Origin: T1SED10-198M sp003554345 [NCBI: Candidatus Sumerlaeota bacterium]
Lineage (GTDB): Bacteria; Sumerlaeota; T1SED10-198M
Direction: 5' to 3'
DNA: 5,710 nucleotides
Assembly: GCA_003554345.1 (NCBI GenBank)
Contig: PWGE01000255.1
Location: 1-5,710 of the forward strand
In this document: one piece after another, positions 4,090 to 5,710 of the stretch
Layout of the letters: every line of letters begins with the position of its first letter
Position numbering within the stretch: position 1 is the first letter of the stretch
Position numbers and translations under genes: made by a program
The notes under the pieces: generated by a model
Databases searched by the model: none
The model's input: the letters and a program-made list of their open reading frames with translations, nothing else
What the model was told of the DNA's origin: nothing

Positions 4090-4121
4090 TTAACGCTCTT
4101 CGAATTCTATCGAACCGTTAA
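4090..4121. terminator. Hairpin at the stop-to-stop junction of fbaB and the pseudopilin gene
   Basis: TTAACG (4090-4095) pairs with CGTTAA (4116-4121), and inside it TTCGA (4099-4103) pairs with TCGAA (4110-4114) around a six-base loop, giving 11 pairs. Being palindromic it can form in RNA from either strand. It starts on the base after the fbaB stop and contains the last codons and stop of the opposing gene. No T-tract follows on either strand, so it may stabilise or pause transcripts rather than terminate them as a classical intrinsic terminator. Confidence 0.4.
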
Positions 4122-4710
4122 GATAAAGAACATTTTCCCCCTTTTCTTCTTCCCAGAGATGAGGAAAAGGGGGATTTTCTTTTGTCCATTCCGGTTGAAT
4201 ATGCATGCAGGCTGCTACCCACATGTGTTCATTTTCTGAGGGAGAGTAAAGAACGGGGGGTTCTTCAATGACGAGATAGTCCATGGCAGGTGCATGATTG
4301 TAGGCATAGCGAAAATGCTCTTTTCGCTCCGGATATAATCTCATAAGAGAAGGACAGTACAGATATTCTTCGCTGCTCAGGTATTCATCATCAACCAGCT
4401 GAAAAGGAACTGCCGACCAGTACCCATTGGCTGCCGGTCCTTCCCCGAAGTTGGATGGAGACGTGAGATTGCTGTTTCTGACGTGGGCATCTCCGTCTGC
4501 ATAAGGGAAAGCATTATGGTCTATATAATACGATTTTAAAGCTGTATCCAGAGCATGGAGATTATTCTGACACTGAACGGTTCGGGCTCTTTCTGTGCCC
4601 ATTCTCAGGTTAATGGTGGCTATAGCTGAAAGAATACTTATAAGGGCAACTACCACCAGTAATTCCAGAAGGGTAAAAGCTTTTTTAAAGTTCAGGGTTT
4701 TATTGAACAT
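4090..4710 (-). CDS. Pseudopilin / type II secretion system-like prepilin
   Basis: The N-terminus has a type IV prepilin signature: short basic leader MFNKTLNFKKA, then FTLLELLVVVALISILSAIA as the conserved hydrophobic helix with the Glu at mature position 5 (Glu16). Prepilin peptidase should cut after Ala11; the usual residue there is Gly, so this is a less common site. The periplasmic domain begins CQNNLHALDTALKSYY, typical of pseudopilins, and the C-terminus NVLYLNGSIEF resembles the NVLFLDGHVEF ending of H-X9-DG/DUF1559 prepilins, with Asn replacing Asp and wider spacing from His184. Cys47, Cys119 and Cys168 could form a disulfide. There are eight His residues. No other secretion or pilus genes are nearby. 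AAAGGAGC (4728-4721) is the only ribosome site and is rather far (about 11 bases) from the ATG. Its upstream leader contains a B12 riboswitch. Its specific role is unknown. Confidence 0.85.
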   Translation of the reverse strand: MFNKTLNFKKAFTLLELLVVVALISILSAIATINLRMGTERARTVQCQNNLHALDTALKSYYIDHNAFPYADGDAHVRNSNLTSPSNFGEGPAANGYWSAVPFQLVDDEYLSSEEYLYCPSLMRLYPERKEHFRYAYNHAPAMDYLVIEEPPVLYSPSENEHMWVAACMHIQPEWTKENPPFPHLWEEEKGENVLYLNGSIEFEER

Positions 4711-4734
4711 TGGTCACATTGCTCCTTTAATTGT

Positions 4735-4810
4735 GCTAATTTCATTGTTAAAATAAAATAACTTAAGAAGCCTGTTGTACCTTCATGAAATGCTTGCATG
4801 AGAAATTAGC
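4735..4810 (-). repeat. 9-base inverted repeat enclosing nested palindromes
   Basis: GCTAATTTC (4735-4743) and GAAATTAGC (4802-4810) are exact inverted copies, 58 bases apart. In leftward RNA they would close a large stem-loop whose base ends about 7 bases before the AAAGGAGC ribosome site of the pseudopilin gene. Inside lie ATGCTTGCAT (4790-4799), a stem of four pairs with a two-base loop, TTCATGAA just beside it, and GTTA/TAAC (4747-4762). It could be an operator cluster or an RNA element controlling translation. Confidence 0.45.
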
Positions 4811-4958
4811 TTTTTTTCTTTGTATTTATGACATGATCCATTTTTCTTGAGGTGCCATGAGTACTGTTACCGGGAGTCTGAGAAGGAGCCCCTTTCCCTG
4901 AATGTTTGAGGCTCATTGCAATAAAAAAAGTGGTTTTGAGCTGTTTTTATCACTGCCC

Positions 4959-4985
4959 TCACGGTACCAGGGTGAACATTTCACC
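4959..4985 (-). other. Mini-ORF whose start codon is the loop of a perfect hairpin
   Basis: On the minus strand GGTGAA (4985-4980) and TTCACC (4976-4971) pair perfectly around a three-base loop that is exactly ATG. GAGG lies just upstream, four bases from the ATG, and the reading frame gives MFTLVP followed by TGA at 4961-4959. It could be a leader peptide start masked by structure or simply a small hairpin. Chance occurrence cannot be excluded. Confidence 0.25.
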
Positions 4986-5046
4986 TCAAAAAAGGTCTAA
5001 AGGCTCTGTTAATGGACAAATGACGGGAAAAAGCTCACGTAAATAT

Positions 5047-5079
5047 TCAGGGATAACCTTCAGGTAAGGAGAAAAACAT
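5047..5079 (-). CDS. Possible 10-residue leader peptide after the riboswitch
   Basis: An ATG at 5079-5077 is preceded by AAAGGAGG (5093-5086) at a six-base spacing, the best Shine-Dalgarno site on the minus strand of this interval. It opens a frame encoding MFFSLPEGYP and then TGA. It is the first start codon downstream of the cobalamin aptamer, which is where the controlled gene normally begins. Either the peptide itself is the controlled product, or it is the stub of a larger gene. Dropping one T from the T5 run at 5076-5072 would instead open 30 codons (to the TGA near 4986). I know no homologue. Confidence 0.35.
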   Translation of the reverse strand: MFFSLPEGYP

Positions 5080-5106
5080 GTTCAACCTCCTTTCGCGTTT
5101 GGTTGA
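5066..5106 (-). promoter_or_regulatory. Riboswitch expression platform with alternative hairpins over a ribosome site
   Basis: TCAACC (5106-5101) pairs with GGTTGA (5087-5082), placing the Shine-Dalgarno AAGGA in its loop. Alternatively AAGGAG (5092-5087) pairs with CTCCTT (5071-5066), burying the ribosome site and closing a loop that contains the ATG. The two helices share G5087. In addition CCTCC inside the aptamer (5190-5186) is complementary to the GGAGG of the ribosome site (5090-5086), which could be a long-range contact of the kind known in cobalamin riboswitches. Control at translation initiation is therefore more likely than termination, since no strong terminator follows. The choice of the ligand-bound state is inference. 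Confidence 0.5.
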
Positions 5107-5112
5107 GAATAA

Positions 5113-5250
5113 GAGAGGGTATTCTGACTTCCGGCTCTTCCTACTGATTCCGCCTTCCCACAGGAAAAGGTCCCTGCAGTGGCATGGAGGAATGTTCGTC
5201 GCCGGTTACAGCGGCGCGTCCGTGGTGGTTTTGCACCACCTTCCCCTCAT
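5113..5250 (-). promoter_or_regulatory. Cobalamin (B12) riboswitch aptamer
   Basis: The minus strand from 5250 down carries the cobalamin riboswitch core in the right order. There is GAGGGGAA at the 5' end, then the stem GGTGGT-GCAAA-ACCACC (5240-5224). Next are GCCGCTGTAACCGGC (5215-5201) with the conserved CTGTAA, ATGCCACTG (5185-5177), a CAGG/CCTG stem (5176-5161), GGGAAGG (5159-5153), and GAGCCGGAAGTCAGAATACC (5137-5118), which contains the B12 box AGTCAGAATACC (5129-5118). GAGGG (5248-5244) pairs with CCCTC (5119-5115) to close the aptamer. These elements and their order fit the RF00174 class as I know it. The RNA normally binds adenosyl- or other cobalamins and represses B12 uptake, synthesis or B12-independent enzyme genes. 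It starts only about 5 bases after the fabD stop and points away from it, towards the pseudopilin gene about 400 bases on. No cobalamin gene is in reach. Confidence 0.93.
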
Positions 5251-5253
5251 CTT

Positions 5254-5282
5254 TTTATAATGTTAAAATGGTATCATATGTA
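5254..5282 (-). promoter_or_regulatory. Candidate promoter for the riboswitch RNA
   Basis: TATAAA (5259-5254) overlaps the fabD stop and would start transcription almost exactly at the first bases of the aptamer. The matching -35 is poor (TACATA, 5282-5277, spacing 17). TATGAT (5278-5273) is an alternative -10, also without a good -35. Read-through from fabD is equally possible. Confidence 0.3.
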
Positions 5283-5710
5283 TTCACTGGAGTGCATTCC
5301 AGGGAAGAATCGATGCGCTTGATGAGTCCTGTTAAAATGTTCCCCGGTCCACATTCCAGCAGGGTCTTCACATTATTGTCGGCCAGATATTCTATAGAAT
5401 CCTGCCACAAAACTGATCCGGTCACTTGTTTAATGAGGTTCTCCTTTATGTCGCAGGCACTTGTTACCGGGCTGGCACAGACATTGCTGATGATAGGAAC
5501 CTGAGCCTCTTTTACTTCTACATTCTCCAGGTAGCCGGCTAATTTTTCCTGTGCGGGCTTCATATAACGGCTATGCCAGGGGCCACTTACTTTTAAAGGT
5601 ATCACCTTTTTTATTCCATGTTCACGAAGAAATTTACGGAACGATAACAGGGTCTTTTTTTCTCCAGAAACAATTATTTGTCCGGGAGCATTGAAATTGG
5701 CTATGTCTAA
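5255..5710 (-). CDS. fabD: Malonyl-CoA:ACP transacylase, C-terminal part
   Basis: FabD transfers the malonyl group from coenzyme A to acyl carrier protein, supplying the two-carbon donor for type II fatty acid synthesis in the cytoplasm. The reading frame is open to the window edge, so only the last 151 residues are present; the Ser nucleophile segment (GHSLGE-type) lies outside. The visible part begins LDIANFNAPGQIIVSG, the conserved NxPxQ(V/I)V(I/V)SG segment. It continues to VIPLKVSGPWHSRYM, whose His (residue 46 of the fragment) is the catalytic-dyad His, then PIISNVCASPV and LLECGPGNILTGLIKR. The gene ends at TAA (5257-5255). An internal GTG at 5605 is not the start, because homologous sequence continues upstream. 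fab genes probably lie to the right of the window. The cobalamin riboswitch follows immediately downstream. Confidence 0.95.
   Translation of the reverse strand, partial: LDIANFNAPGQIIVSGEKKTLLSFRKFLREHGIKKVIPLKVSGPWHSRYMKPAQEKLAGYLENVEVKEAQVPIISNVCASPVTSACDIKENLIKQVTGSVLWQDSIEYLADNNVKTLLECGPGNILTGLIKRIDSSLECTPVNTYDTILTL

What the first reader, a model, noticed from the sequence alone, without database searches (positions are those of the whole stretch)
5113..5250. B12 riboswitch with no cobalamin-related gene downstream
The aptamer has nearly all conserved core elements, so it is probably functional. Yet the next ORF of normal size on its strand is a pseudopilin-like gene about 400 bases away, and the riboswitch starts right after fabD. 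Known targets are B12 transport, synthesis or B12-alternative enzymes. Options are a riboswitch-controlled small RNA (as described for Listeria and Enterococcus ethanolamine systems), a leader peptide, control of the pseudopilin, or a relic of a deleted gene.
Basis: partly seen in the sequence, partly recalled or inferred. Interest (0 to 1): 0.75.

Follow-up and report, generated by a model that had tools for sequence, protein, structure and literature searches.

The report
Vitamin B12 riboswitch controlling a pilin
A vitamin B12 sensor in the RNA of an uncultured bacterium sits ahead of a pilus-like protein, and in related bacteria that same protein is encoded next to B12-uptake genes while the usual outer-membrane B12 receptor is mostly not found, which hints at a different way of taking up B12.

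Summary
In detail: a full-length cobalamin riboswitch lies at 5294-5097 (minus strand; RF00174, 86.2 bits, E 6.5e-21). The premise of "no cobalamin gene downstream" is not. The gene downstream, a type IV pilin-like protein (4710-4090), belongs to the B12 regulon of its phylum, Candidatus Sumerlaeota. One clear orthologue exists in 36 of 40 Sumerlaeota genomes; in 28 of these it lies up to 4 kb downstream of an RF00174 riboswitch on the same strand, against 0 of 92 other pilin matches. In 6 relatives it is the first gene after the aptamer. Neighbours are probably secreted propeller-like proteins, a protein whose model best matches the B12-binding BtuH domain, a BtuF-like binding protein in 7 of 27 and once a cobalamin adenosyltransferase domain. 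cbiC is found in 0 of 40 genomes and TonB-receptor plugs in 4 of 40. Best reading: a B12-repressed pilin of a largely TonB-receptor-free B12 acquisition system. How the pilin acts is inferred. In this genome a 386-nt leader with a 10-codon ORF separates aptamer and pilin, so the regulatory step is unproven.

The parts
5097..5294 (-). cobalamin riboswitch aptamer (RF00174, full length)
   Evidence: cmscan 86.2 bits, E 6.5e-21, model 1-189/189; also found by whole-genome search
5082..5106 (-). putative P13-L13 hairpin of the expression platform (UCAACC / GGUUGA, loop AAACGCGAAAGGA) that encloses the Shine-Dalgarno sequence
   Evidence: script; a hairpin with a UUCG-type loop stands at about the same place in many relatives with changed stem sequences; no formal covariation test was run; the names P13 and L13 are recalled
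5086..5093 (-). Shine-Dalgarno sequence AAAGGAGG of the 10-codon ORF
   Evidence: sequence
5047..5079 (-). 10-codon ORF MFFSLPEGYP, at about the position where several relatives start the first riboswitch-controlled gene
   Evidence: sequence and translation; function unknown
4711..5096 (-). 386-nt leader between aptamer and pilin, without an intrinsic terminator found and without detectable remnant of a neighbouring operon gene
4722..4728 (-). Shine-Dalgarno sequence AAAGGAG of the pilin
   Evidence: sequence
4090..4710 (-). type IV pilin/pseudopilin-like protein, 206 aa; orthologue of a pilin linked to B12 riboswitches in Sumerlaeota
   Evidence: Pfam N_methyl over its cut-off and DUF1559 at its cut-off; TIGR02532 over its cut-off; orthology and linkage
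5255..5710 (-). 3' part of a fabD-like acyltransferase gene whose end overlaps the 5' end of the aptamer match

Best explanation
The element is a cobalamin riboswitch that most likely shuts down a pilin when B12 is plentiful. Shown by calls: the aptamer; the pilin's orthology; its repeated linkage to B12 riboswitches; its operon partners (propeller-like proteins, a protein with a BtuH-like model, BtuF-like protein, ABC ATPase, FecCD-type permease, once a cobalamin adenosyltransferase domain); the rarity of TonB receptors and the absence of cbiC in the genomes searched. Inferred: when B12 is scarce, the pilin is made, processed and assembled by type II/type IV pilus-like machinery, and together with secreted B12-binding proteins brings B12 across the outer envelope to the BtuF-like protein and ABC transporter, a task done elsewhere by BtuB and TonB. 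In relatives with the pilin directly behind the aptamer, control is most likely by hiding the pilin's own ribosome-binding site in the hairpin behind the aptamer (clearest in G002, where the 3' strand AGGAG is the Shine-Dalgarno sequence). In this genome the same hairpin encloses the ribosome-binding site of a 10-codon ORF, so control of the pilin 386 nt downstream would have to work through translation of that ORF (coupling or Rho-type termination). This last step is a guess.
For: Riboswitch. Orthology: with the pilin profile lacking the N-terminal helix, 36 of 40 genomes have one match of 130 bits or more, and the best of the other 92 matches has 36.9 bits. Linkage: 28 of 36 orthologues within 4 kb downstream and on the strand of an RF00174 match, 0 of 92 other pilin matches. 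Six of the 27 linked relatives have the pilin as first gene 50-151 nt behind the aptamer. Of the 8 unlinked orthologues, 2 follow the propeller/BtuH-like pair and 1 follows a propeller gene, all three cut by a contig end, and 1 is followed by a BtuF-like gene. Partners: BtuF-like (Peripla_BP_2) gene behind the pilin in 7 of 27 linked relatives, with an ABC ATPase next in 6; cobalamin adenosyltransferase domain in G004. BtuH-like model: VIA-align Z 12.8 and 11.8 to the BtuH domains of 7biz and 8blw, next entries 9.6. Need for uptake: CbiC 0 of 40; 12 B12-binding domains over the cut-off in the own genome. Route: plug domain 4 of 40, secretin 40 of 40, FecCD 39 of 40. Own genome: the second riboswitch precedes a propeller-family gene, another probably secreted protein and a BtuF-like gene.
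Against: No biochemical evidence that the pilin binds B12 or touches the transport pathway. Four orthologues (G017, G018, G020, G029) show no B12 link in the sequence held; G029 is cut by a contig end. In several linked relatives the gene behind the pilin has nothing to do with B12 as far as Pfam tells (amidoligase, peptidyl-prolyl isomerase, ABC exporter, or no family). Four genomes with the pilin do have a TonB-receptor plug (G007, G021, G029, G032), most genomes are incomplete, and a diverged receptor could be missed. The pilin model (pLDDT 77.9) matches nothing in PDB with E 0.001 or better. In this genome the pilin starts 386 nt away, behind a small ORF, and has its own ribosome-binding site. 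The BtuH-like call rests on one model of pLDDT 71 of a relative's protein, not one of this genome. The own BtuF-like protein scores 69.6 bits on the BtuF model, below its cut-off of 234.
Confidence: 0.62

Rival explanations
1. The pilin is a dedicated export part: a minor pseudopilin that helps a type II-like system secrete the B12-binding surface proteins, and has no part in bringing B12 in.
For: Directly upstream of the pilin lie probably secreted proteins in 20 of 27 linked relatives; most of them carry a shared C-terminal W-x-x-Y-E/Q-like tag; secretins occur in 40 of 40 genomes.
Against: The tag also occurs on other proteins away from B12 genes, so a dedicated pilin is not needed for it. 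In six relatives the pilin stands first behind the riboswitch, without such a partner directly before it, and in G004 it leads into a gene with an adenosyltransferase domain, then BtuF-like and ATPase genes.
Confidence: 0.2
2. In this genome the riboswitch is a relic, or acts only on the 10-codon ORF; the gene it once controlled is deleted and the pilin is driven by its own promoter.
For: 386-nt gap; strong ribosome-binding site and start codon at about the place where several relatives begin a first gene, followed by a stop after 10 codons; both riboswitches of this genome are followed by a start ATGTTTTT.
Against: The aptamer and the hairpin behind it look intact; no remnant of an operon gene above shuffled controls; no sigma-70-like promoter before the pilin in a simple scan, which does not cover other promoter types; the pilin remains the next gene on the strand, as in relatives.
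Confidence: 0.12
3. The riboswitch controls a small RNA or a leader peptide, as in the ethanolamine systems of Listeria and Enterococcus (named by the first reader).
For: A 386-nt leader and a 10-codon ORF exist.
Against: No other Rfam match in the leader at E 1 or better; no intrinsic terminator found to end such an RNA; the leader does not fold better than shuffles (z -0.31); relatives show protein genes here.
Confidence: 0.04

Closest known systems
Cobalamin riboswitch, RF00174
   Same: Full-length match above the gathering score; Shine-Dalgarno sequence in a hairpin behind the aptamer, as expected of translational cobalamin riboswitches (recalled).
   Different: The gene downstream is a pilin; searches of the held library for such a target gave no relevant listing.
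B12 transport loci of Bacteroides (BtuB, BtuG, BtuH, BtuJ, BtuF, BtuCD)
   Same: B12 riboswitch, surface B12-binding proteins and BtuF/BtuCD genes together (PMC10404256, PMC8941943, PMC12751083: passages seen; PMC13398666: abstract and two sections). A Sumerlaeota operon protein has a BtuH-like model.
   Different: No TonB-receptor plug found in 36 of 40 genomes (barrel model); a pilin is present. The propeller-like proteins tested match no BtuG (PF16819) or DUF4465 model in Pfam.
Type II secretion pseudopilins / type IV pilins, DUF1559 pilins
   Same: Prepilin cleavage/methylation motif in 28 of 28 linked pilins and a long N-terminal helix in the model.
   Different: The part after the helix sets this orthologous group apart from the other pilin matches and has no solved relative found; the gene is linked to B12 riboswitches.

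Membership tests
Cobalamin riboswitch RF00174 | score above the curated threshold over the whole model | tested here: met
   86.2 bits against 31.5, model 1-189
Cobalamin riboswitch RF00174 | expression platform behind the aptamer (hairpin hiding the ribosome-binding site, or terminator) | tested here: inconclusive
   hairpin 5106-5082 encloses the Shine-Dalgarno sequence of a 10-codon ORF; no terminator found; kissing-loop pairing not tested
Cobalamin riboswitch RF00174 | binding of cobalamin and change of expression | not testable with these tools
   needs in-line probing or reporters
Type IV pilin / pseudopilin | prepilin N-terminal cleavage/methylation motif | tested here: met
   PF07963 28.8 bits against 21.2; TIGR02532 30 bits against 16.3
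Type IV pilin / pseudopilin | membership in a named pseudopilin or pilin equivalog (GspG, GspH, ComGC ...) | tested here: not met
   all equivalog models listed score below their cut-offs, e.g. GspG 35.7 against 88.85
Type IV pilin / pseudopilin | assembly into a fibre | not testable with these tools
   needs microscopy or fractionation
BtuH-like B12-binding protein (operon partner in relatives, not in the window) | BtuH C-terminal B12-binding domain fold | tested here: inconclusive
   best matches of the model (pLDDT 71): Z 12.8 to 7biz residues 316-592 and 11.8 to 8blw_B 393-660, next unrelated entries 9.6; no sequence-level match in PDB or Pfam
BtuB/TonB B12 uptake system | TonB-dependent receptor (plug and barrel) | tested here: not met
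   own genome 0 plug and 0 barrel matches; phylum: plug 4 of 40, barrel 4 of 40 of which 3 over the cut-off; the own genome is 87.7% complete
BtuF (own genome, contig C7, L080) | periplasmic binding protein family and BtuF equivalog | tested here: inconclusive
   Peripla_BP_2 68.7 bits against 27.5; BtuF equivalog 69.6 bits, below its cut-off of 234

The most novel reading that the evidence does not exclude
Sumerlaeota take up vitamin B12 through the outer membrane with a pilin-based machine instead of a TonB-dependent receptor: a B12-repressed pilin, built and possibly retracted by a type IV pilus/type II secretion-like apparatus, collects B12 from secreted propeller and BtuH-like binders and hands it to a BtuF-like protein in the periplasm, much as competence pili bring DNA in.
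Probability: 0.25. Interest if true: 0.95.

Novelty: new variant of a known kind. Interest (0 to 1): 0.72.

Why it matters
Cobalamin riboswitches are known as switches for B12 transport, synthesis or B12-alternative enzymes. A pilin family repeatedly placed under them, in a phylum in which no cbiC and few TonB receptors were found, makes a concrete, testable case for an unrecognised route of B12 acquisition. It also suggests a function for one of the many unexplained pilin families of uncultured bacteria.

Tried and rejected
Small RNA or terminator: no other Rfam match in the leader, no intrinsic terminator found, leader folding not better than shuffles. Remnant of a deleted operon gene between aptamer and pilin: best score 19.2 bits against a median of 20.4 in 100 codon-shuffled controls. 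RAGATH-25 (18.9 bits, cut-off 49) and KCNQ1OT1_1 (11.3, cut-off 70) matches in the window are far below threshold and were dropped. The idea that the C-terminal W-x-x-Y-E/Q tag marks only B12 proteins was rejected: it occurs on other proteins in the same genomes. Sequence searches of the partner proteins against PDB gave no relevant match. The pilin model gave no PDB fold match with E 0.001 or better. Literature searches for a pilin under a cobalamin riboswitch, for B12 in Sumerlaeota/BRC1, or for TonB-independent cobalamin uptake gave no relevant listing (listings only).

Limits: the profile was built from the 28 riboswitch-linked pilins, which favours them; but unlinked orthologues score as high (G017 284.7, G008 271.8 bits), and a search with the window protein alone also found the linked pilins as best matches of their genomes. 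The genomes are related, so the Fisher p (2.2e-21) is not a true probability. One search used stricter filters that can lose weak riboswitches. The list typed into held the 55 Sumerlaeota riboswitches and one of another genome (G052), which had no effect; the 26 other non-Sumerlaeota rows were left out. One pilin-motif ORF, 255 nt behind the G034 riboswitch (L089:1474-2070, minus; N_methyl 27.6 bits), is not a match of the pilin profile; it was left out of the alignment and of both counts. That proteins are secreted was judged from their N-termini by eye; no signal-peptide tool was at hand. Pilin start codons in relatives were set by a script and may be off. One search finds only loci that match one of two short patterns, so the family may reach further than it shows. 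An earlier count said 9-codon ORF; it has 10 codons.

Full report
Observation. The window is a whole contig (C92, 5710 bases) of an 87.7% complete, 454-contig genome. Infernal finds a complete cobalamin riboswitch at 5294-5097 on the minus strand, 86.2 bits, E 6.5e-21. It overlaps the last 40 bases of the fabD-like ORF and is followed after 386 nt by a 206-aa ORF (4710-4090) with a type IV prepilin N-terminus. The genome has one more cobalamin riboswitch, on contig C7.

Which organism. A scan of one genome for each of 84,980 species with the pilin profile (N-terminal helix removed) gave 24 loci: 20 in records named Candidatus Sumerlaeota, Sumerlaeaceae, Sumerlaeia or candidate division BRC1, and 4 in records named only "bacterium". 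I take the 39 genomes that the tool calls same-phylum, and the window's own, to be Sumerlaeota.

The pilin is a member of the B12 regulon. With the profile, 36 of 40 genomes have one match of at least 130 bits, and the best of the other 92 matches has 36.9 bits, so this is an orthologous group of its own among 14 to at least 51 pilin-like matches per genome (the tool scored no more than 51). In 28 of the 36 genomes the orthologue lies up to 4 kb downstream of, and on the same strand as, an RF00174 match; of the 92 other pilin matches none does (from the tables). One other pilin-motif ORF, outside both counts, lies 255 nt behind the riboswitch of G034. In six relatives (G002, G004, G026, G027, G028, G031) the pilin starts 50 to 151 nt behind the aptamer and is the first gene. 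In the other 21 linked relatives it stands further down, in 20 of them directly behind a probably secreted protein's gene. Of the eight unlinked orthologues, G024 and G032 follow the same propeller/BtuH-like gene pair and G011 follows a propeller gene, all three cut by a contig end; G008 is followed by a BtuF-like gene; G029 is cut by the contig end; G017, G018 and G020 show no B12 neighbour and no riboswitch in the sequence looked at.

The partners. Directly before the pilin stands either a protein of about 260 aa (11 of 27 linked relatives) or a propeller-like protein of about 450 aa with weak BNR similarity (9 of 27). Other first genes are NHL- or PQQ-like propeller-type proteins. Behind the pilin, 7 of 27 have a BtuF-like binding protein (Peripla_BP_2 over its cut-off; G006, G012, G013, G015, G016, G025 directly, G004 one gene further), in 6 of these 7 with an ABC ATPase next. 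FecCD permease matches lie close by on the same contig and strand in G004, G006, G015, G016 and G025. In G004 the pilin is followed by an ORF with a cobalamin adenosyltransferase domain (187 bits, cut-off 24), then the BtuF-like gene, then the ATPase. Of six further ORFs behind pilins that were scanned, three matched families without a known B12 link (amidoligase, peptidyl-prolyl isomerase, ABC exporter) and three matched none. Of 17 second riboswitches of the phylum that were fetched, 9 precede a gene of the NHL-like propeller family and 5 other operon-family genes (one of these a BtuF-like/ATPase pair); 3 had no assignment. In the window's own genome the second riboswitch precedes a propeller-family protein, another probably secreted protein and a BtuF-like protein, so its B12 regulon seems to be split: binders and BtuF-like protein on C7, pilin in the window.

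A BtuH-like partner. The 260-aa protein has no Pfam or PDB sequence match. An AlphaFold2 model of the G003 protein (pLDDT 71, 9 sequences) has as best Foldseek match the BtuG1 chain of the B. thetaiotaomicron BtuB1-BtuG1 complex (E 7.1e-5) and, at rank 7, the B12-binding lipoprotein 7biz (E 1.7e-3). The second look ranks these two first, Z 12.8 (158 residues, 3.4 A) and 11.8, against 9.6 for the next, unrelated entries. The aligned parts, 7biz 316-592 and 8blw_B 393-660, span the residues that bind B12 in BtuH2 (Gln333 to Trp577; passages of PMC8941943) and lie in the C-terminal BtuH extension of BtuG1 (passages of PMC10404256). This is fold evidence, not proof of binding.

Need and route. CbiC, a corrin-ring enzyme, is found in 0 of 40 genomes (control: 7 of 14 reference genomes). 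This one gene suggests, but does not prove, that the phylum cannot make B12; the own genome has 12 B12-binding domain matches above the cut-off. TonB-dependent plug domains are found in 4 of 40 genomes, barrels in 4 of 40 with 3 over the cut-off, none in the own genome; the four genomes with plugs also have the pilin. Secretins are found in 40 of 40 and FecCD permeases in 39 of 40, 37 above the cut-off. So uptake through the inner membrane looks conventional, and the outer-membrane step does not.

How the switch may work here. Behind the aptamer many relatives carry a hairpin with a UUCG-type loop followed by a Shine-Dalgarno sequence or, further on, a terminator-like hairpin (stems vary, e.g. 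CUUCU/AGAAG, GCCU/AGGC, CCUUUU/AAAAGG; no formal covariation test was made, and in several genomes the script's hairpin is probably not the right one). In G002 the 3' strand of this hairpin is the pilin's own Shine-Dalgarno sequence, the clearest case of direct control. In the window the hairpin (5106-5082) encloses a Shine-Dalgarno sequence that serves a 10-codon ORF (5079-5047). No terminator and no remnant of another gene were found in the 386-nt leader. The likely, unproven, route is that ligand binding blocks translation of the small ORF and so lowers expression of the pilin by coupling or premature termination.

Literature. Six searches of the held library gave no relevant listing that links a cobalamin riboswitch to a pilin, treats B12 in Sumerlaeota/BRC1, or describes TonB-independent cobalamin uptake (listings only). 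The Bacteroides system is described with TonB-dependent BtuB in PMC10404256 and PMC8941943 (passages), and further binders in PMC12751083 (passages) and PMC13398666 (abstract and two sections).

Verdict. The riboswitch is real. The puzzling "missing" target is a pilin that belongs to the B12 regulon of its phylum. That this pilin takes part in B12 acquisition there is well supported by linkage; what it does physically is open.

Noticed in passing
Sumerlaeota loci L117-L146 and operon proteins: Many probably secreted proteins end in a C-terminal tag W-x-x-Y-E/Q directly before the stop, in unrelated families and also away from B12 genes: 52 matches of the codon pattern in 4 genomes against 18 of the reversed pattern; 22 of 30 loci looked at are ends of ORFs over 260 codons. 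It looks like a sorting signal; whether it is described was not searched.
   Followed up: partly
window 5047-5079 (minus): A 10-codon ORF (MFFSLPEGYP) with a strong Shine-Dalgarno sequence behind the riboswitch; the gene behind the genome's other riboswitch also starts ATGTTTTT.
   Followed up: partly
L089:1474-2070 (minus), G034: A different pilin-motif ORF (N_methyl 27.6 bits) lies 255 nt behind a cobalamin riboswitch in a genome without the orthologous pilin.
   Followed up: partly
L056:4994-6838 (G004): A 615-codon ORF with a cobalamin adenosyltransferase domain and weak similarity to cobalamin-independent methionine synthase in its first half, between pilin and the BtuF-like gene; possible fusion.
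   Followed up: no
L053, L055, L077 downstream of the pilin: In G001, G003 and G033 the pilin is followed by two genes that look like larB and larC of nickel-pincer cofactor synthesis (recalled from the sequence, not tested).
   Followed up: no
L103:600-646 (minus): An Acido-Lenti-1 RNA (44.4 bits, cut-off 37) lies just upstream of the G011 pilin.
   Followed up: no
L149 (G017): The pilin orthologue stands between two other pilin-like ORFs, without a B12 neighbour.
   Followed up: no
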